Shown piece after piece: positions 8,031 to 59,864 of a stretch of DNA of 64,000 bases. Under the pieces are notes generated by a model, which did not search any database, was not told the origin of the DNA, and saw only the letters and a list, made by a program, of their open reading frames with translations. Origin of the DNA: Symmetrospora coprosmae (lineage: Eukaryota; Basidiomycota; Cystobasidiomycetes; Symmetrosporaceae). The first letter of the stretch is position 1. Every line of letters starts with the position of its first letter. The stretch covers positions 124,001 through 188,000 of the forward strand of contig VUYT01000018.1 of the NCBI GenBank assembly GCA_008802785.1, given 5' to 3'. The translations under genes and the position numbers were made by a program.

Positions 8031-8248
8031 CGGCACCTCACCTCACCCTCGTTCTTTCCATCCACCCATTCATCCAACAAGAACAAGGAGAGCGATCTCT
8101 CACAGACACGGCACAACTGAACCAGATGCTGCCGTGCACATCCTCAGCCTGCCTTAGGAGGAGAGCGCCATAGCCCTATTCTGCTCCGCCTCCAGCTTGC
8201 TCCTCAGTCGCTCTCCGTCATCGCTTCGCGTCACCCGTGACACATCGG

Positions 8249-8284
8249 CCAGCCAGCAAGCCAGCAAGCCAGCAAGCCAGCAAG
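8249..8284. repeat. 8-bp repeat (CCAGCAAG)n abutting a start codon
   Basis: About four copies of CCAGCAAG end one base before the ATG at 8286, so the repeat forms the immediate 5' leader of the NT-C2 gene. Confidence 0.85.
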
Positions 8285-8285
8285 G

Positions 8286-11200
8286 ATGGACCACCTCGTA
8301 CGGGGAATGGGCCTGGGCCATCTCGGGCACAAGTCGAGCGACTTCTACGCCCACCTGCATGTCGTCGACCTCTACAACGTGCCCATGATGGAGGGCGAGT
8401 GCAAGATAAAGTGGCGCTTCAAAGGGGCAATGCACCTCAACAACGTCGAGAAGAGGGAGATCCTCGACAAGGCCAGCAAAGGAACGATAGGCTACGTGCT
8501 CGGAAGCGTGGCCGAGAGAGCCAGCAGCAAGCTCAGCAGCAGCAGCCTCCACCGGAGCAGGAAGGAGAGCGCGAGCGCGAGCGCGAGCGTAACCGCGACC
8601 GAAGACGCCCGGCATCAACATCGCCGAACGTCAAAGCACCCGCCAGCTCCCGAATACTCACACGGCGTCGATGACGACAGTGGCGATGAGCCGAGAGCTG
8701 CGCGCATTGGTCCGGAGGAAGGGCTTCGTGACGGAGGGAATGACACGACAGGAGGTGGCGGGGCAGGAGGAGGAGGAGGTCACCGTCTGGCCAGCCTCGG
8801 CAAGGCCCTGTTCCACCCAAGACAAGCGCTCGCCTCGAGGCGCCGCTCAAATGCTAGAGACCAGTCTCCGAACAGCTCACTCCAAGCCAGCCTCAATGGC
8901 AATGGCCATGCTGAGCCTTCTACTGCGGCGTCCTCGCCGGACCAGCAGCCCGGCGGGCCACCTCTGGACCACAGCAGGACGCCTCGCCAGCCTACTCAGA
9001 GCAGCTTTGCCATGTCGCCGCTGTCACCGACAGGTACCATAGTCGCTGCACGCAGCCAGAGCCCGCCCCTCCAGAGCTCCCCCTCGAGGCGCTCCACAAA
9101 CCGCAAGGAGCAGTCGCAGTCGCAGGGGAACGACGGTGGAACGCTACCACACGCCATCTCGCGCATCTCTACGACCCTCTCGCACATGTCCACGCGAACT
9201 ACATCCGACGAGGCACCAAAGGTCGTGGACCCAGTCACCGACTCGAAGGGCTCGACAAAGTTCTTGCCCCTCATCAGCAATGCGTGCCAGTTCGACCAGC
9301 ACGTCATCTGCGCCGTGTCGATCCCGCTCGAAAAGACGACGCACCACCTTCAGGCCTGCCCGATCCGCCTCGCCGTTCGGCACAAGGTACGCGTCACGCC
9401 GATTCCGTTGCGCGACGGTGCCGCTTGCGGAGGTGGCGACGCGTCCCCGCAGCAGCAGCGCAAGGGCGGAGGCAGCATTGCGAGCTCCAGGAACATGTCA
9501 GCTTCGTCGTCGACGCTTTCGCTCACGTCTCAACACTCGCAGAAATCAGAGTCGCACGCGCACACACACATCAAGGAAGAGTACGAGGAGCTTCACCTCG
9601 GCGAGGTCAATCTTGATCTGTCTGAATTCGTAGAAGCTGGGCAGTCAAGCAAGAAGAGCGAGCGCTGGATCACGCGGAGGTACCTCTTGCAGAACGGCAA
9701 GACGAATGCTCTGCTTCGCATAGCCGTGAGAATGGAATGGCTGGGCGGGGAGCCATACTTTGTGCCGTGAGTCGCTTGCTGGACCGTGGCTGCGCTTGCT
9801 GCGCTTGATCTGACTTTCAGCCGACCTCAAAGACCGCCCCTCGTGACGGGCCAGATCAAGAAGGACACGGGCAAAACGCGATCAGACAGCGCCACCAGCA
9901 AATCCGACTCGCTTAGCGTGCAGCACACGAACGGGAGCGGGCTGAACCTCCTGCAAGTCAACAGCTCATCGCAATCGATCAACAGCATTAATCAGACAGG
10001 GCAGAGGGGTGTCCCGTCGGTGCAAGTCACGGGCTCGCCGAATGCCGAAGGGAGAGGAGGAGGAGCAGGAGGCACCAATTCGCGGGCTGGGGGCGATTTC
10101 AAGCGGAGCGTCATTGATACAGACAGCTCAAAGTCGCTTGCGTCGGACCAGGCAGCCTTTGACCTGGTCGAAGGCATCTTCGAGTCCCGCATCGGGTTCA
10201 CACCCTTGTCTGTACCAGCCGCGCGCACGCGGTCACGGTCCACCACCGCCGGCTCTGGAGGCGCCACGCCGTCCCCGTCGTCGGCTACATTCGCAGCCGC
10301 AGCGGCGCACGGCGCGCACGAGCCCAGAACGCACCGGGGCGCAAAGTGGTTCCGGGAGCTGAACCCGCACCACGATCCGTCGAGCGCGCCGCACAGGGGC
10401 TACAGGCACGAGAGCGGCGGGCCAGCCCTGCACCGCTTTCAGGATGCGGCGCGGGACGTCATGCACATGCAGCATCCGACAGAGGCGCAGATGATTGCAG
10501 AGCGCGCGATGGAGAAGCACCGCAGCTTGCAGCTGCAGGACGCGAAGCGATCGTCGAGGGACAGAGAGAGAGACGCGACGCCAGAGAGTCCAACAAAATC
10601 CTGGGCACCGCCCTCTGCCGACAGGCTGTCCCCGCAGAAGGCTGAAAAGAGGAGAGAAGGGCTCGAGCGGGCCAACATGGCCAGCGGTGCCCAACCGCAG
10701 TCAGCTGCGGCTCGCTCCTCCGCCAAGCGAGCGTCGTCTCCTGTCAAAGAGACAAGGAATGCCAAAGGCCTTCTTCGATGGCCCTCGCCCAGCAGAAACA
10801 ACAGCTCGTCATCGCTCGAGGTCCCTCAGCATGGCTCGGGCGCCGCACGCTTCTTGCGGAATGGTATTGCGCGAACCTCGTCACGAGACGGTCCGGATGA
10901 GGGAGATGACCAACGCACGCCACGACTTGAGAGTGGAGACGAACACTTCCGGACGACGTACTATCATGGTGGACAACAAGACGGTCCCGTACCGGGAGAT
11001 CCGGCGCAGCATCGCGTCTCAACCTACTCGACACCGGAGAGACCAGACGCGTTGGAGGAGGAATGGAGCGGGCGGGCTCGTACGCGAACGCGAAGTGCGC
11101 CCTACCCGAATGCACAGAGTATTTCCGCGGGGAACAGCCATGCTGGAGACGAAAGTATCGCTAGTCTCGCAAGCGCCGCTACCGCTACAACGACCGCATC

Positions 11201-11702
11201 GTCGTCCTCCGGGCGGTCCTCTCCGTCGCGGACCAAGTCGGTGAAGTGGGAGGATCCGCCGCCGGCAGACCACGAGCAGGTCCTTGCCATACTGCGGCAG
11301 GTGGAGCAGAAGCAGGAGCAGAGGCGGGCGGAGAGCCTTCGCAGCGAGAACAGCTTTGTCGAAGGGTACGCCCGCCGGCCGCCCCAAGGTCGAGGCAGCC
11401 GTCCGCCCAGCACGCGTAGTGGAAGTAGCAGCAGCAGCAGGCGCAACAGTCCGGACAGGGTATTCGGTACCGCTCACGGAATCTTGACATATGGCGGCGC
11501 GAGCGGGGCTTCGACTGCACCCGCAGAGCTAGCAGGGAAAGGTACAAGTACGGCATCGCGGCCGAGCCCGTTTGCGGCTAGGCAGGTCGAGGAGGAGGAG
11601 CAAGATGAAGGCGAAGGCAAGAGCGCAGATGACGCAGACGTCAAAAGGGCACGCGCACTGCAGGAACGAGGCTTGCTTCCCGTGGGAATCGTCAATGCAT
11701 GA
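8286..11702 (+). CDS. NT-C2 (EEIG1/EHBP1 N-terminal C2) domain protein
   Basis: Exons 8286–9766 and 9821–11702; splicing reads YFVPRPQRPPL across the junction. 1,120 residues. The N-terminus (HKSSDFYAHLHVVDLYNVP, GECKIKWRFKG) is the first half of an NT-C2 domain. The second half appears only from about residue 320: KFLPLISNACQFDQHVICAV, IPLEKTTHHL, then LHLGEVNLDLSEFVE and RYLLQNGKTNALLRIAVRME. The intervening ~230 residues are low-complexity Ser/Ala/Gly/Arg, including a (GCGAGC)n tract coding Ser-Ala repeats near 8568–8590. A second, smaller insertion falls around residues 380–440. The C-terminal 620 residues are largely disordered with short charged helices. The family usually links membranes, Rab GTPases or actin; the role of fungal members is not established. 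The start is the only ATG preceding the domain. Confidence 0.82.
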
Positions 11703-11985: not shown

Positions 11986-14556
11986 ATGCTGCGCCAACCC
12001 TCCTCGCGGGCAGCAGCTCTTGCGGCGGCGACTGCAGCCTCCGGGCGAACGATGACAGCAAGGCGGACCCTGGCGAGCTTGACGTCCAGGCAGAGCTCGT
12101 CGGCTGGTGCTGCAGGCAGGCAGCAGCTGTGGAAGATGAGGTGCGTGTCCAGCTGTCGACACTGTGCTGCGAGCTTGGAGGCGCTGACAGGCATTGCTCC
12201 CTGCGCTTGCCGTCCGTGTGTATGTGCTGGACGCTCTTCCTCCTGCACCCGCCCAATGCCTCGCCCCTCCGCGGTCTCTCCCACCCAGCCCTGCCCTCAC
12301 CTCGAGCCTCAGCTACAGGCGTAGCGTTGCTGGTCTTCACTCTTCGGCAGTTCAGCATGGTGAGTAGGCGTGCCGTGCGTCAGCATGAGCCAGCTTCGGG
12401 CCCCGCAGCTGACCGCTCCTTGGACAACCGAATGGACCGACGGACAGCCGAGGAGACCATCAAGGTACCCCAGATGGCAGAGTCCATCTCCGAAGGAACG
12501 CTCAAGACGTGGCTCAAGAAGGAGGGGGACTACGTTCAGGCCGACGAGGAGATTGCGAGCATAGAAACGGACAAGGTAGGGGAGATGGGCATGCCGGGGC
12601 AACGGCAGGGGCAGACGCGGAACTCACGTCAAAGCATACTAAAGAACAATCACGCGTGCACAGATTGACGTCGCCATCAATGCCCCCAAAGCAGGCAAGA
12701 TTGGCAAATTCTTTGCGAAAGAAGAGGATACGGTGCAGGTTGGGCAGGACCTGTACACGCTCGACTCGGACGCTGAGGGTGGTAAGCATCAGATTATGGC
12801 TGGTAGTGATACCCACCAGGGCCGTGCCTGAAAGCGTCCCTCCGTACTTTCAGGCGAGTCTTCGGGCAGCAGCAGCGAGAAGAGCGAAAGCCAGCCCAGC
12901 AAGAGCAGCGAGGATAGCGAGCCGAGCCCGGCGACCGACGCCAGCAAGGCAAAGGACATGACTCAGGGAAACAACAAGGCCACCGAGGCGCCCAAGGAGC
13001 GCGAGGTCAATCCTGAGCCTTCCAACGAGCCTTCCGAGGCCAAGAGCGATAACTCTGCCTCTGCACCTGCGCCATCGGGAGATGCCGAGACCATCAAGGT
13101 CCCCCAAATGGCTGAGTCCATCTCTGAGGGCACACTGAAGACGTGGATGAAGAAGGTTGGCGACTTTGTCAAGGCCGACGAGGAGATTGCCAGTATCGAG
13201 ACCGACAAGGTGGGTCACCCTCCTTCGAGGCGATGACTCTCACGCCGAGGCACACTCACTCAGTCTCGCTATATCTATCCACAGATTGATGTCACGATCA
13301 ATGCACCAAAATCGGGCACTATCGTAGAGATCCTTGCAAAGGAGGACGAGACCGTGTCAGTTGGCCAGGATCTGTACAAGCTTGCGCCTGGCGATGGTAG
13401 GTCGCTCATTCCGCACGTAGTTGCTGGTTTGATGGCGTACACGGCCCTGACAGCTGCCTCTTCCGCCGGCTCCAGCGCCATCAGGCGGCTCTTCTTCCTC
13501 ATCAAAGCCGGAACCTACATCGCCGGAAAATACGGCATCAGGCAACCGGAAAGCCAACGAGTCGCGACAGGAGATCACCAATAAGGAGAATGAGCCAAAG
13601 CGGCCAGAGCCCAAGGCTTCCAAGCCTGAGGAGGTGAAGCAGCCCAAATCGCAACCGCAGTCGAGCGGCAAGGACGCAAAGAAGGCAGAAGAGCCAAAGG
13701 CAGCTCAGGCTGGCGCCAGGAACGAGACGCGCGTCAAGATGAACTCGATGCGGAAGCGCATTGCCGAGCGCCTGAAGCAGTCGCAGAACGCGGCGGCCTC
13801 GCTCACGACCTTCAACGAGATCGACATGTCGTCGCTCATGCAGATGCGCAGCCAGTACAAGGATCAGGTACTCAAGAACCACGGCGTCAAGCTCGGGTTC
13901 ATGTCGGCGTTCGCAAAGGCGTCGTGTCTCGCCCTGAAGGAGATCCCAGCGGCCAACGCATCCATCGAGGGTCCAGGTCCCGGAGACCAGATCGTCTACC
14001 GAGACTACGTCGACCTCTCGGTTGCTGTCGCCACCCCGAAAGGTCTCGTCACGCCCGTCGTCAGGAATGCCGAGACGATGAACTTCCTCGAGATTGAGCA
14101 GGCCATTGCTGGACTTGGCAAAAAGGCCAGGGACAACAAACTCACCCTCGAGGACATGGCCGGAGGAACCTTCACCATGTGCGTGGGAAATCAACTTGTG
14201 CATGCCTCATTACGTCGCTGATTCTGCGGTATGTTCTACAGCTCCAACGGTGGCGTCTTCGGCTCGCTCTACGGAACCCCAATCATCAACGTCCCTCAAG
14301 CAGCGGTTCTCGGCATGCACAGCATCAAGGACCGTGCTGTTGTCGTCGACGGCAAGATTGAGATCAGGCCTATCATGGTCGTCGCCTTGACTTACGATCA
14401 CCGGTGAGTCTGGTCGGTAGAGCGAGAACGGATTTGCCGAAGGCGACGGCTGAGGCGAGTGTCCGGCGATCGTGTAGACTCCTCGATGGACGCGAAGCAG
14501 TCACCTTCCTCGTGCGCATCAAGCAGTACATTGAAGACCCGCGCTTCATGCTGTGA
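11986..14556 (+). CDS. KGD2: Dihydrolipoamide succinyltransferase (E2o of 2-oxoglutarate dehydrogenase) with two lipoyl domains
   Basis: Transfers succinyl groups from lipoyl-lysine to CoA in the mitochondrial TCA cycle. Exons: 11986–12140, 12319–12359, 12409–12575, 12664–12781, 12854–13209, 13285–13396, 13542–14178, 14242–14403, 14478–14556; 608 residues. The order is a mitochondrial presequence ([20 protein letters not shown], Arg/Ala/Ser-rich), lipoyl domain 1 (about 82–158, lysine 121 in IETDK), a Ser/Lys/Glu linker, lipoyl domain 2 (about 240–316, lysine 279 in IETDK), a Lys/Pro/Glu-rich linker, and the catalytic core starting [15 protein letters not shown] with the active-site DHRLLDG split by the last intron. 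Yeast and animal E2o have one lipoyl domain, so the second copy is unusual. In both domains the intron directly follows the lipoyl-lysine codon. No canonical E3-binding domain is seen, as usual for eukaryotic E2o. Confidence 0.93.
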
Positions 14557-23287: not shown

Positions 23288-26249
<2,962 letters not shown>

Positions 26250-31365: not shown

Positions 31366-34300
31366 TCATTTCATGCCGAAGAAGTCGGCCTCCACGTCTG
31401 TCTCTGCCATGCTCGGGCGAACTGTCGCACGCCTGTGCATCTCTCTGGCGTCTGTAATGTAGCTGGCCGGTATATGGAGCTTCTCCTTCAGGAAAGAAGT
31501 CGCTTCGTGCGAGAGTTCATCGACGTGCCGCGCAAGCAGCTCGCAGATCGCCTTCTCTCTGCTCTCGCTCCCTTCCAAATGAAGATAGACAAAGGCAGAC
31601 CATGTCCAAAGACCGGCCCGCTCCAGCTGGTCTGCGTAGCTTTCCGCAAGCAGCTCCGCTTTTGCGCTGTAGCCTGTGGTGGGGTCGGCATCTTCAAAGT
31701 CCCGCACACGCATTGCTCGCACGAGCAGTTCGTACAGGTGCCAGGGCTGGAGGAAATCGACGGGCGAGGCGGAGAAGCAGCGAGGGCTGAGTGCCGCTTC
31801 GAGGGAGCGCGAGCGGTCCGTGTACAGCTGGATGAGCTCGTACAGAGCATCTTGAGTGGCCGAGCTTTGTGGCAGCTGCCATTCCTTCCCTTCAGATACG
31901 AGCGCATGCTCTGGTAGTGGCTTGGACAGCCGCGCATCCTCGCCCACGTCCTGGTCGTAGGCTGTAACGGCATTCGAAATTGTCGTATCGGAGCGAGCAT
32001 ACCAGAATCGGAGAGCCATGGCTCGCTTCCAGTCCAGGCCTTCGCTGATCGTGATATCTTCGCTCGAGTCCGTGCTGCTGCTGCCCTGGATGCCTTTGGA
32101 AGTCCCGACGTTCCCGCTGAGCAGCTCGTAGATCTTGCGGTAGTCCTTTGCGATATGCGGGTCTACTCGGTATTCGCGCCACTTCTGGATTTGCAGGTCC
32201 ACGTGGGCCCTGAACTCGTCGTCGCCGCCGGTCTGTGCGAGAAGCGTCGCTAGCCGCACATCCCCGTTAGAGATGGCAGACTGGCAAGCTCGCTCGACTT
32301 GGTGCCCAGACAGCAGAGCGAAGATAGTAGCTGGGACGGGGGCTGATGCGGATCCGCTGCTGGCTAGCTCTCGGAGTTCGTCTTCGACGGCGGGAGCGAC
32401 TGCCGTCTTGAGCCAGGCAGAAAAAGCATCGCGCCGGCGGATGAGGCTGACCCGCTGCTGAGTCTCGCTTGAGAAGGTGTCCGGCAGGCGCAGGTCGATC
32501 TCATCGAAAAGCGCGCACCCGAGACGCCAGAGGTTAGCGTGCTCGGAAGGGCCTGCTGAGCGGACCTTGCTGAGGAAATGGTGGAAACGGAGCGTGTTTA
32601 GGGTAGATGCCAGCGGGAGGACGGAAGGATCTGCCTCGCTCGAGATGTCCGAGTGCTCTAGCTGAAGCTCGAGCAGCTGCGTGGCGGCCTTGACGTGGTC
32701 ATTCTTTATACGCGGTGTAGAGCGATAAGACGTCAGCGTGCGAACCAGCGCTTGAAAATAACGGGATGGGGAGGCACACCTTTGCGACAACCAGGAGATC
32801 CGGCCGGGCTATTTTGACGGACGTAAGGTCCGTTGACTCGCTGCGAGATTCGAGCATCAGGTATTGCTGTCAGCCTCAAGACTCCTGGATTCTGCCGCGC
32901 AACTGGTACGCACACTTTGGTGTCGATCGCGGTAACCCTTCCAAGGGTGACCAGCTGGCCATTGGCTCCCCATGAGACCCGGAACGACCGGCCGAGCATG
33001 AGACCAGCATCCGCGGGTTGGCCCTCCTTTCCGCATGCCAAGGTCTGTGCATGCGGGACTGCCTTCCATTTCCGCAACGGGCGGTAGGTAGGGATGTAGG
33101 TCTCTGGAGTGTCGAGAGCCGGTGTGACTGCGAGGTATTTCTCTGGTCTGGGGCTATGAGCGGCTCCGAGCTCTCGCTTGTCTGGACCTGAAGCCCGCGA
33201 AAGTATCTCGCGTCGGGCCGGCGGTGTTCCCGGTGCAGCGGACTGCACGGTGTCAACTGCCGTCTTGCTGGAGGAAAAGAAACTCGCCTGCATGACGGCC
33301 AACTTTTTGGGTTCCAGCCCGAGACGCTGCCCGATAGGGCGCTGAGGTGCAGACTCGGATCCTGCTACCGACGGAGTGGGCTGCCTTATATCACTTCTAG
33401 CGTGCTGCTTTGGCTGATGCTCGTAGCGCGACCGGACGGGTGATTCGAGATCACGCAATCTGGACGATGGTGCGAAGCGCGGCGTTGGCACAACGACTGA
33501 GCGCTTGCGTCGACGAGTCTCCTCTTCGCTCCCTTCCTCGCTGTACGTCGTGTCATCGTCAAAGTCGGGACTGCCTGGCGTGCCTTCCCGGTATCTGGAG
33601 CGAGTCGCACCCGGCGTGCCCGATAGTGAACCAGACCGTTCGGTCACAGAATCGTCCATCTCTGTCATTGACTCGTCCTCGAGTGTCGCTTGAGGGGGCG
33701 CATCCTCGTCATCGTTGTAGTCTGCGTCGTCTGGATCAGAAGCCGAATCGCTGACGGGCGAATCCGTCGCCCGTGATCGTTTGACGTTGGGCTGGCTAGC
33801 CCGCTTTTGCAGCGCTTTCTTCCGCTGAGCCGCCGGGGAGCTCGCTGGGTCATCGTGTCGCTGCATTGTTTCATCGCCCGCTCCTTCGTCCTCGTCGTCA
33901 CTCTCGTCAAGACCCTAAGAACGGTAATTGTGGAATAGGCAAAGGTGAAAGGCAATCAGCACTGGGCAGGCTTTGCGATATTGTGATCAAGATGTATTGC
34001 TGATGCAGTCAGATTGGTTAACATACATAGCGAGAGAAGTGCTGAACCTTGAACGTCCACGTTCCAGTCTCGATTTCGTAGTCCACAAACTCGGTCTCTT
34101 GCTTCTTGCGGAGCTTCTTGATGTGCTGCTGGACTCGCGCATTGTTGGGATCCTTGATCGGGTTTCGCGTCGCCTTGTCGAGCGGCCAGCAGTTGTTCAA
34201 GCTGACGGCGGCAGTGACGTTGAGGCCGTTGCCGACCTCGGGCTTGTCCTCCTCGTACTCTCCAGGGTAGACCATAACCTCGCGATCCTCGATGATGACA

Positions 34301-37300
34301 ATTGAACCGAGGAGTTCATCGAGGCTTTGCAGGCCGGTCAGATCAACCGGCTTCAACCAAGACACCTCCCCGAATCCGACTCTGCCAACGCGCAGATCGT
34401 GCACCTCTGCCAGATCTTCGCGGCTTGTCTTTTTAAGCGTCTCGAGTAACGGCTTGGTGTAGTAGTCGCCATCGCTTGGAGCCTTCTCAGAGCCCTTGGT
34501 GGGAGCGGCTCCACCCTTCTTCTGCCCTGCAGACAAGCCCTGCGACGAAGGTGTGGCCGACATTGAGGGTGCTTTGCCCTTGTTGCCATTGGCTGCAGTC
34601 GCGCTCGGAGGGACACCGTTGCCCCTCTCCGCAGTTTCCGCATGCGGGTTGAAGGCTATCCGCCCGGCGTCGGCAGGACCCTGAATCTGCTGCTGCTGGG
34701 GAGCGGGCGTGGCCGAGCCGCTAACAGTACCGTTGTTATCGTTCCTCTTACGGAACAGGAACTCCGAGCTCTCGCGATGCTTCTGGTCGATGACGAGCTT
34801 CTTGACACTCGGTCGCGCGACAAAGGCCTCTGGCGGTAGGGTGTAACCATTGTTGACACTGAGACCGCCGCCATTCAGCAGAGCTAGAGCAGGAGACGCA
34901 GTTCCGCTGCGGGCGATGGAGCTGGCGCCAAGAGGCGTGCCTGGAAGACCAACGCCAGATCCCCCAAGAGCTGGACTGCCGAAGCGGCTTCCGTTCAGAG
35001 CGGGCGACGACGCCGATGTCGTGAAGCCGCGTAGCTTGGCTATTCTTGGTGTGGAGCGAGGCGTGCCGCGGTACGAGATGGTGAGGGCTGGTTGCCTCTT
35101 CGGCGAGTCGATATTGACCGCCTGAGGCGCACTGCTCGACAGCTGGTGCGCCTGCACATTTGCGAAGATTGGGTTGTTGCCGTACGGGTTCTGGTCGATG
35201 GACGTATTCAGTGGCTGCAGATTCTGTTGCTGTTGCTGCTGGTTTTGTGGCTGAGATAGCGAAAACTGGTTGTTATTCTGCTGTTGGCCGAAGCCGCCGA
35301 ATGACGAGCCCGGCTGCGAGAAGCCAAACCCTCCGCCAGCTGCAGCGCCGGAGTTGTTTTGCGTCTGCCCGAGATTGCCGAAAAGGCCACCTCCGCCCGT
35401 GTTGCCCGTGGACCCGCCTCCGAGTTTACCAAACAGGCCTCCTCCCTGCTGAGGCTGCTGCTGCTGCTGCTGCTGCTGGCCAGCGTTGTTGTTCCCAAAC
35501 AGACCGCCTCCAGAGTTCCCCCCGCCGAATAGCCCGCCGGAGGCGTTGGTGTTGTTGCTGGTGTTCGCACCTCCGCCAAAGCTGAAGCTGGGCGCGCTGG
35601 TGGTAGTTGCACCTCCGCCGCCGAAGAGTCCACCAGCCGGTTTGGCCTGGGCAGCTCCTCCTCCAAAGAGACCTCCTCCAAAAGTGGATGTTCCGCTGTT
35701 GTTCTGTGCAGGCTGCTGCTGCTGCTGCTGCCCAAAGCCGCCGGTAGTGCTTCCAGCACCGCCCAGGTTGCCAAACAGCCCTCCGCCAGACGCAGCAGGT
35801 TGCTGCTGGTTGCTTTGGCCGAAGAGGCCGCCTGAGGGCTGAGTTGTAGCGGAAGTATTGCTGGCACCGAAGGAAAACGTTGGCTTGTTGTCGGTCGCCG
35901 CCCCACCGCCGAACAGACCACCTCCTGCGGGCTTTGCCCCAAACAGGCCGCCGCCTGCATTTGCAGTGGCGTTGTTCTGCCCAAAGCCGCCAAAGGTCGA
36001 TGTTGGCGCTTGTTGCGTGTTTTGCTGGCCAAAGCCGCCAGTCGTGGTCGAGCCGCTTCCGAACAGACCTCCGCTAGCCGGCTGGCTCGTGTTACCGCTG
36101 CCTGTGTGTGCAATACAGATCAGAAAAGGCGGTCGCAAGGCTGATCTGGCTTTGGAGTACTCACCGAAGCTGAAAGCCGGCTTGGCCTGCTGCGTGGCGT
36201 TGTTCTGACCAAAGCCTCCAAAGGTGCTCGTTGCGGCTGCCGGCTGGCCGAAACCGCCAGTGGTGGTCGTGCTCTGCTGGCCGAACAGTCCTCCGGAAGC
36301 CGCAGGCTGGCCGAATCCTGTTGTAGTTGTTGCCGGTTTGCCAAAGCCTCCACCGCTACCGAAGAGGCCGCCACCTGCCGTGCCGCCGGAATTTGAGCCG
36401 AAGAGCCCACCGCTCGCTGCGGGCTGTCCGAACCCTCCAGTCGCAGGTGCGGCGCTTGCGCCGAAGCCGCCTGTGGTGGCTCCTGCGGATTGTCCAAAGC
36501 CGCCAAAGGTAGCTCCCGCTGCAGGCTGAGCTGGAGCCGCCTTGCGGTTCTGCTGGTAGTCCTGTACGCGCAGCTCTTCGGGCGAGACGTGCCAGTACAT
36601 GGGGAGTGCGACAATATTGTCAAACAGGAGCTGTTCGCCCGTGATGGAAGTCTGCTTGCCGTCTGGCCCAGTCTGCGTTCCGGAGCGGTTGTCCTTCCAC
36701 ATCAGGATGCGCTGACTATCCTTTGGGTGAGGCGGCGCGTCGGCAGAGCCATTCGTGGGCACAGGACAGGCCATGTTCGGGTTGACAGGGTCATTAGGGT
36801 TCCCGCCCATCCCGCCGCCGAGGCCAGTCCCGAACCCTCCGCTACCGGCACCTGCGCTGCCAAAGAGGCCTCCTCCGGTCTGAGCAGGCTGGGAGCTTTG
36901 GCCTGGCGAGACAGTGTGGAAATCACGTCAGCGTGTAGATCACTTGGGCAGCTGCAAAAGCACAGCCTACCGAAGGAGAAGCCTGAGCCGCCGCCGAAGG
37001 CTCCAGTACCCGTGCTGGCAGGCTGGGAGCCGAAAAGACCGCCTCCCGTGCTGCCTGTGTGGGTAGCGCCAAAGGCAGGAGTAGAAGAGGCATTGGATCC
37101 GAATCCCCCAGTTGAGCCTGTGGAGCGAAGAAAGCGACAACATGACTCGGTGGTGTCAGTCGAGTCCAGTCAAGCCAGCGCGCCCGGTCTGGACGCCTGA
37201 GCCGCCGATCGCTCCCCATCACCGCTGCAAGCGGGAGTAGCGCACCAAAGAGAGATGTCTGCTGCTGCTGAGGCTGCTGCCCGAATCCGCCAGTCGAAGC

Positions 37301-57978: not shown

Positions 57979-59864
57979 ATGTCTGCACCTACACTCAGCC
58001 TCAACTTCGGCGAGGGAGCCGGAAGCGTCAAGTCTTCCAAGTTCTCCGGAGGTGCGCACCGCATGAACGTCCGCGCTCTTTGGGGTCTGGTCAGATGACC
58101 TTCAACCACATAGACTGACTGGTTCCACTGTTCACCTTCAGGTCTCTTCATCAACGGCGAGTTCGTCGCTGGTGAGGGAGGAAAGACCATCGACGTTGTC
58201 AATCCCACGACCGGCGAGAAGATTGGAGAGGTCTCTGAAGCTTCGCCCAAGGATGTCGACCGAGCTGTTGAGGCCGCGCAGAAGGCATTCGACACCGTTT
58301 GGGGTACCAAGTGCCCTCCTCACGACCGTGCACGATACATGCACAAGCTTGCGGATGCCATCGAGGCCAACATCGATGAGATTGCTGCCATTGAGGTGAG
58401 GAGCACGCACTGTTCAGCCTGGGATGCAAGTTAGGGCTGACATCGTGATGTCCGGACATTTTCACAGTCCCACGACAACGGAAAGGCCTTCTCCATCGCA
58501 AAGGGCTTCGATATCGCCGAGGCCGCTGCTTGCCTCCGCTACTACGCTGGCTGGGCCGACAAGAACCACGGAAAGGTTGTCGAGTGCAATGACGCCAAGA
58601 TGGCATACACCCGTCACGAGCCCATCGGTGTCGTCGGCCAGATCATTCCCTGGAACTTGTGAGTGCCGCTTCTGTCACACCATCTTTGCCGTTACTGACG
58701 CAGTCTGCGATTCGCCAGCCCCGCACTCATGTTCGCATGGAAGATCGCCCCAGCTCTTGCTACCGGAAACACAGTTGTCATCAAGACAGCCGAGCAGACT
58801 CCTCTGTCCGCCCTCAAGATGGCTGAGCTCGCTAAGGACATCCTGCCCGCCGGTGTCCTGAACGTCATCTGCGGTTACGGCCGAATCACGGGTTCCGCCA
58901 TCGCATCGCACATGAAGATCGAGAAGGTCGCATTCACCGGATCCACTCTTGTCGGCCGAGCCGTCATGAAGGCTGCCGCCGACTCCAACTTGAAGAAGGT
59001 CACCCTCGAGCTCGGTGGAAAGTCGCCCAACATCATCTGCGAGGACGCAGACCTTGAGCAGGCTGTTGGATGGGCCGCCTTCGGCCTCTTCTTCAACCAC
59101 GGCCAGACTTGCTGCGCCGGATCGCGAGTCTACGTGCAGGAGTCGATCTACGACGCGTTCATGGAGAAGTTCCAGAAGAAGGTCGAGAGCCTCAAGGTCG
59201 GCGACCCGTTCAAGGCCGACACCTTCCAGGGTCCCCAGGTCTCGCAGCTCCAGTTCGACCGCATTATGGGTTACATCGACGACGGAAAGAAGTCGGGTGC
59301 CAAGACGCTCACTGGAGGCAAGCGACTCGGCGACAAGGGTTACTTCATCGAGCCCACGATTTTCACCGACGTCAACCCGGATGCTTCCATCGCAAAGGAG
59401 GAGATCTTCGGCCCCGTCGTCGTTGTCAGCAAGTTCAAGGATGACGAGGACCTGATCAAGGTCGCAAACGACAGCGTCTACGGCCTTGCTGCCGCCGTCT
59501 TCTCCCGAGACATCTCCCGAGCCATCACCATCTCAAATAGGCTACAGGCTGGTACCGTGAGTGGCTTCCGCTCTCATTTGCCTGCTCTGGGATCGTTCCG
59601 GCGGCGGCCTGGATCTGGTGGAAGGCTAACATGACCTCGTCTGGCTAATTCAGGTCTGGGTGAACTGCTACAACCAGCTCACCTCGAGCGTTCCTTTCGG
59701 AGGCTTCAAGCAGTCTGGCATTGGCCGAGAGCTTGGCGAGTACGCGCTGTCGAACTACACCAACGTCAAGGGTGAGCCCGGTCTTGCAAACGTGCAAGCG
59801 CGCGAATGGTCTGAGCTGACTCTACTACCTCATGGATCAAAAAGCTGTGCACATCAACTTGTGA
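57979..59864 (+). CDS. Aldehyde dehydrogenase (NAD(P)-dependent, ALDH1/2 superfamily)
   Basis: Oxidises acetaldehyde and related aldehydes to acids. Exons: 57979–58051, 58142–58395, 58468–58658, 58719–59556, 59654–59771, 59845–59864; 497 residues. Motifs: [20 protein letters not shown] (cofactor and Asn site), [23 protein letters not shown], the general-base Glu in [10 protein letters not shown], the nucleophile Cys in [19 protein letters not shown] and [16 protein letters not shown]. The last exon is only 20 bases and codes AVHINL plus stop, giving the family's typical C-terminus. There is no mitochondrial presequence ([13 protein letters not shown]), so it is likely cytosolic. Codon use resembles that of the divergent ADH, suggesting co-expression. 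Confidence 0.96.

What the first reader, a model, noticed from the sequence alone, without database searches (positions are those of the whole stretch)
12409..13396. 2-oxoglutarate dehydrogenase E2 with two tandem lipoyl domains from an exon duplication
Two lipoyl domains precede one catalytic core. Their first halves (from [11 protein letters not shown] to IETDK) differ at only 4 of 41 residues, and in both copies an intron follows the lipoyl-lysine codon directly (after 12575 and after 13209). The second halves ([28 protein letters not shown]) have diverged much more, and the DNA shows many silent changes, so the duplication is not recent and both copies look selected. E2o in yeast and animals has one lipoyl domain; multiple domains are known in E2p. 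A double arm could change active-site coupling or lipoylation demand.
Basis: partly seen in the sequence, partly recalled or inferred. Interest (0 to 1): 0.75.

Follow-up and report, generated by a model that had tools for sequence, protein, structure and literature searches.

The report
Two-armed fungal 2-oxoglutarate dehydrogenase E2
A fungal gene for the core subunit of a citric-acid-cycle enzyme carries two copies of the small "swinging arm" domain instead of the usual one; the copy is old and both versions look maintained, but bacteria of one order have reached the same layout independently, so it is a variant rather than a new kind of enzyme.

Summary
A clean nine-exon GT-AG model (11986-14556) gives a 614-residue mitochondrial-type E2o (Kgd2/SucB) with two lipoyl domains (LD1, LD2), one succinyltransferase core and no E3-binding domain. 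Both LDs carry ETDK at the lipoylation site with a phase-0 intron directly after the lysine; a second intron, phase 1, is also shared. What was copied is therefore a two-exon segment with its introns, not one exon. Silent sites are about equally saturated in both halves (pS 0.68, 0.69) while replacement changes are few (dN 0.05 and 0.19-0.23): the duplication is old, both copies are constrained, and the half-to-half contrast is unequal constraint. Published mammalian and Chaetomium E2o have one LD. Twin-LD E2o is not unique, however: I found it in Bacteroidota, where 59 of 69 sampled E2o frames in L001's order are long and all 27 long ones read have two LDs, of separate origin. No paper on a twin-LD E2o was found. 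Three single-LD splice forms would stay in frame; RNA data are needed. Distribution within fungi could not be tested. New variant of a known kind.

The parts
11986..12140 (+). exon 1: start codon and mitochondrial-type presequence
   Evidence: first ATG after an in-frame stop; residues 1-66 have 9 R, 1 K, no D or E
12319..12359 (+). exon 2: rest of presequence (...[13 protein letters not shown]), ends phase 1
   Evidence: GT-AG flanks, frame kept
12448..12575 (+). exon 3: LD1 first half, ends directly after the presumed lipoyl-lysine codon (ETDK), phase 1 to 0
12576..12663 (+). intron after the LD1 lysine (phase 0)
   Evidence: GT-AG
12664..12781 (+). exon 4: LD1 second half, phase 0 to 1
12854..13209 (+). 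exon 5: inter-domain linker (about 78 aa, rich in S, E, P, A) fused to LD2 first half, ends after the LD2 lysine codon, phase 1 to 0
13210..13284 (+). intron after the LD2 lysine (phase 0), same position as in LD1
   Evidence: GT-AG
13285..13396 (+). exon 6: LD2 second half, phase 0 to 1
13485..14178 (+). exon 7: second linker (about 79 aa) and start of the succinyltransferase core; an in-frame acceptor at 13475 would add 3 linker residues
14242..14403 (+). exon 8: catalytic core
   Evidence: Pfam 2-oxoacid_dh; [12 protein letters not shown] restored by the splice
14478..14556 (+). exon 9: end of the core (DHR/LLDG spans the junction), stop codon

Best explanation
[quoted passage not shown] Both domains are expected to be lipoylated and to pass succinyl groups from E1o to the E2o core and electrons to E3, giving up to 48 lipoyl arms per 24-subunit core instead of 24. 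The outer arm reaches further, because two linkers of about 78-79 residues lie in series. Shown: one continuous reading frame with two intact LDs, family identity, shared introns, constraint on both copies. Inferred: both domains in one mRNA, lipoylation of both lysines, and that the benefit is longer reach and more frequent coupling, or one arm anchoring E1o/E3 while the other cycles.
For: Nine-exon model with every intron GT-AG and no stop in 614 codons. TIGR01347 sucB 586 bits against a cut-off of 379, while every E2p model stays below its own cut-off. Best solved relative is the Chaetomium E2o at 500 bits, ahead of the bovine one at 390. Each LD on its own scores 98-105 bits with the Chaetomium E2o LD and only 25-30 with the Chaetomium and human E2p LDs 6zlm, 7bgj and 1fyc, so LD2 was not borrowed from E2p. 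Two introns sit at the same place and phase in both copies. dN/dS about 0.03 (first half) and about 0.1 (second half), with saturated silent sites and no frame damage (Fisher p 7e-11 and 6e-6). No E3-binding domain, as described for eukaryotic E2o (PMC9974300). Both LDs are acidic, net -7 and -6, as described for LD recognition in the fungal complex (PMC10203282).
Against: No transcript or protein data. Pairwise dN/dS cannot say that both copies do the same job. LD2's second half is further from the Chaetomium LD than LD1's is (16 against 11 of 34 differences), so one copy may have specialised. Only one fungal E2o (from PDB) was available for comparison.
Confidence: 0.8

Rival explanations
1. 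Alternative splicing: the two LD units are used wholly or partly as alternatives, giving one-armed subunits, alone or mixed with two-armed ones in the same core.
For: Exon phases are symmetrical. Skipping exons 4-5 (a chimera of LD1 first half and LD2 second half), exons 5-6, or exons 3-4 each leaves one intact LD and an open frame of 456, 458 or 532 residues.
Against: Symmetry follows from duplicating a phase 1-1 segment, so it is expected without any regulation. All splice sites look ordinary. No RNA data.
Confidence: 0.12
2. The duplication is ancient (before the split of this fungus from Chaetomium) and other fungi lost one copy. This rival concerns the age, not the anatomy.
For: In LD trees LD1 groups with the Chaetomium LD and LD2 lies outside (98/85; 88/87).
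Against: A tree holding LD1 and LD2 together is not rejected (p-AU 0.094). First halves of LD1 and LD2 are closer to each other (4 of 39) than either is to Chaetomium (7 of 39 each). Only 67-75 columns and one fungal reference.
Confidence: 0.2
3. One LD is a decaying or purely structural copy that is not lipoylated.
For: LD2's second half is the more divergent one against Chaetomium.
Against: Both keep ETDK and the surrounding motif; the bound from dN/dS leaves little room for neutral drift in either copy.
Confidence: 0.07
4. Assembly artefact: a misassembled or collapsed allele creates a false tandem copy.
For: The window comes from a single sequence and its genome is not held, so read depth cannot be checked.
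Against: The copies differ at 18% (first half) and 31% (second half) of bases, have unrelated intron sequences and are joined by a unique linker in one frame.
Confidence: 0.02

Closest known systems
Fungal and animal mitochondrial E2o (Kgd2/DLST), e.g. Chaetomium thermophilum 7q5q
   Same: Presequence, E2o-type LD, long disordered linker, succinyltransferase core, no E3-binding domain; 500 bits over 228-614
   Different: Known members have a single LD (PMC8146983 for human, PMC10203282 for Chaetomium); this has two and an extra linker
Twin-LD E2o of Bacteroidota (L001-L006, L047, L042)
   Same: Two LDs on an E2o; L001, L042 and L047 pass the TIGR01347 cut-off, and L001 and L042 lie beside an E1o gene
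   Different: Bacterial, intron-free, with an E3-binding domain in L001 and L042; LDs do not group with the fungal pair (p-AU 4e-11), so the layout arose separately
Multi-LD E2p (human 2 LDs, E. coli 3) and actinobacterial E2 (TIGR02927; PDB 9y7v)
   Same: Tandem LDs with flexible linkers before one acyltransferase core
   Different: E2p or shared-E2 families with a subunit-binding domain; this protein is below the TIGR02927 cut-off (345 against 423) and the E2p cut-offs

Membership tests
Dihydrolipoyllysine-residue succinyltransferase (E2o, Kgd2/SucB) | sequence above the curated equivalog cut-off (TIGR01347) | tested here: met
   586 bits, cut-off 379; NF004309 541, cut-off 449
Dihydrolipoyllysine-residue succinyltransferase (E2o, Kgd2/SucB) | acyltransferase core with the DHRxxDG motif | tested here: met
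   PF00198 277 bits over 383-614; YDHRLLDG present
Dihydrolipoyllysine-residue succinyltransferase (E2o, Kgd2/SucB) | N-terminal lipoyl domain with target lysine | tested here: met
   two Biotin_lipoyl stretches, each with ETDK
Dihydrolipoyllysine-residue succinyltransferase (E2o, Kgd2/SucB) | single LD per chain (usual eukaryotic architecture; customary, not catalytically required) | tested here: not met
   two LDs; this is the variant feature, and E2o with two LDs passes the family cut-off in bacteria too
Eukaryotic E2o | absence of a peripheral subunit-binding (E3_binding) domain | tested here: met
   no PF02817 at E<=1 in the window protein, while L001 and L042 have it
Dihydrolipoyllysine-residue succinyltransferase (E2o, Kgd2/SucB) | succinyltransferase activity, lipoylation, 24-mer assembly | not testable with these tools
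   needs biochemistry
E2p (dihydrolipoamide acetyltransferase) | above an E2p equivalog cut-off and with a subunit-binding domain | tested here: not met
   TIGR01349 249 against 445, TIGR01348 241 against 552; no PF02817

The most novel reading that the evidence does not exclude
A lineage of fungi keeps a two-armed E2o whose arms have divided labour (for example one cycling, one anchoring E1o or E3 in place of the lost E3-binding domain) and whose symmetrical exons let the cell tune the number of arms per core by splicing.
Probability: 0.08. Interest if true: 0.75.

Novelty: new variant of a known kind. Interest (0 to 1): 0.4.

Why it matters
Eukaryotic E2o is presented in the literature read here as one-armed and without an E3-binding domain. 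A natural two-armed E2o is a ready-made test of whether arm number and reach limit the complex, and of the proposal that spare, unloaded arms anchor the peripheral enzymes (PMC10203282). The separate origin in a bacterial order suggests that a second arm on E2o can be useful or at least harmless.

Tried and rejected
Window genome search: no genome is held, and all genome collections on hand are prokaryotic or viral, so distribution in fungi could not be tested. IMG/VR scan: no relatives. LD2 from E2p: rejected by scores. Gene conversion of the first-half exon as cause of its high identity: not supported, since silent divergence is equal in both halves. Intron sequences of the two copies show no significant similarity (p 0.07 and 0.24), in keeping with an old event; the linkers show a weak DNA similarity (p 0.014) that may only reflect composition. 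Common origin with the bacterial twin LDs: rejected (p-AU 4e-11). Structure prediction was not run: the spliced protein is not contiguous in the DNA, which the tool requires. First splice models had four wrong boundaries and were corrected. All ten literature searches found no description of a twin-LD E2o; subscription journals are largely missing from that library.

Full report
What is there. The + strand from 11986 to 14556 reads as nine exons, all introns GT-AG, 614 codons without a stop. The start codon is the first ATG after an in-frame stop, and the first 66 residues contain nine arginines, one lysine and no acidic residue, as expected for a mitochondrial presequence. Then come LD1 (exons 3-4), a linker of about 78 residues, LD2 (end of exon 5 and exon 6), a second linker of about 79 residues and the acyltransferase core.

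What it is. NCBIfam calls it sucB with 586 bits (cut-off 379), while every E2p and actinobacterial E2 model stays below its cut-off. The best solved relative is E2o of the fungus Chaetomium (500 bits), ahead of 9njt and the bovine protein (about 390 each). Each LD alone prefers E2o LDs: 105 and 98 bits against Chaetomium E2o, but only about 25-30 against the Chaetomium and human E2p LDs 6zlm, 7bgj and 1fyc. There is no E3-binding domain, which agrees with the published finding that eukaryotic E2o lacks it (PMC9974300).

How the copies relate. Both copies have an intron directly after the lipoyl-lysine codon (phase 0) and another, phase 1, at the end of the domain. So a segment of two exons with introns was copied, not one exon; the phase-1 intron before LD1 has no partner before LD2. 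The first halves differ at 4 of 41 residues, but silent positions are saturated in both halves (pS 0.68 and 0.69). The pairwise dN/dS values, about 0.03 and about 0.1, leave little room for neutral drift of either copy. A contrast between halves remains in the protein (p = 0.012) and is best read as unequal constraint.

How old. LD trees place LD1 with the Chaetomium LD and LD2 outside, which would make the duplication older than that split, but LD1+LD2 as sisters is not rejected (p-AU 0.094) and the first halves say the opposite. With one fungal reference the age is open.

How common. No fungal genomes are in the collections. In prokaryotes a scan with the whole protein returned E2o with two LDs in Bacteroidota (L001-L006, L047, and L042 from Chitinophaga costaii). 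Those tested (L001, L042, L047) pass the sucB cut-offs; L001 and L042 lie beside an E1o gene and carry an E3-binding domain. In a sample of the order of L001, 59 of 69 E2o frames are at least 495 residues long; all 27 long ones read in full have two LDs. In the order of L042 only 4 of 47 frames are that long, judged by length. The fungal and bacterial twins have separate origins (p-AU 4e-11). Searches of open-access papers found no description of a twin-LD E2o; a review describes a single LD in E2o (PMC8146983) and another one to three LDs in E2 in general (PMC6270654).

How it probably works. Succinyl groups formed on E1o are carried on lipoyl-lysine to the E2o core, and the arm is then re-oxidised by E3 (established for the family; PMC9974300). 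Two LDs in series would give up to 48 arms per 24-mer, with the outer arm on a longer tether. In the Chaetomium complex the peripheral enzymes are substoichiometric, and spare unloaded LDs have been proposed to act as anchors (PMC10203282); a second LD per chain would fit either more coupling or more anchoring. These last points are inferences. Because the copied unit begins and ends in phase 1, three single-LD splice forms would stay in frame, so RNA evidence is the first thing to get.

Verdict. A real, old, selectively maintained domain duplication in fungal E2o; unusual for a eukaryote as far as the literature read here goes, but with a bacterial parallel, and of the same general kind as multi-LD E2p.

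Noticed in passing
L001-L006, L047, L042, L081, L087-L115: Twin-lipoyl-domain E2o, beside sucA where checked, appears to be the rule in one Bacteroidota order (Cyclobacteriaceae, Flammeovirgaceae and kin) and sporadic in the order of Chitinophaga; no paper found.
   Followed up: partly
window 31369-36927 (-): Nup98-Nup96: FG repeats and the S59 autopeptidase domain in one frame, Nup96 in a following frame.
   Followed up: no
window 24241-25635 (+): Polo-like kinase: end of the kinase domain and start of the polo box.
   Followed up: no
window 8241-11702 (+): NT-C2 domain (EEIG1/EHBP1-like) frame at 8241-9767, followed by a long low-complexity frame up to 11702, directly upstream of the E2o gene.
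   Followed up: no
window 58699-59631 (+): Aldehyde dehydrogenase exon (PF00171, 396 bits).
   Followed up: no
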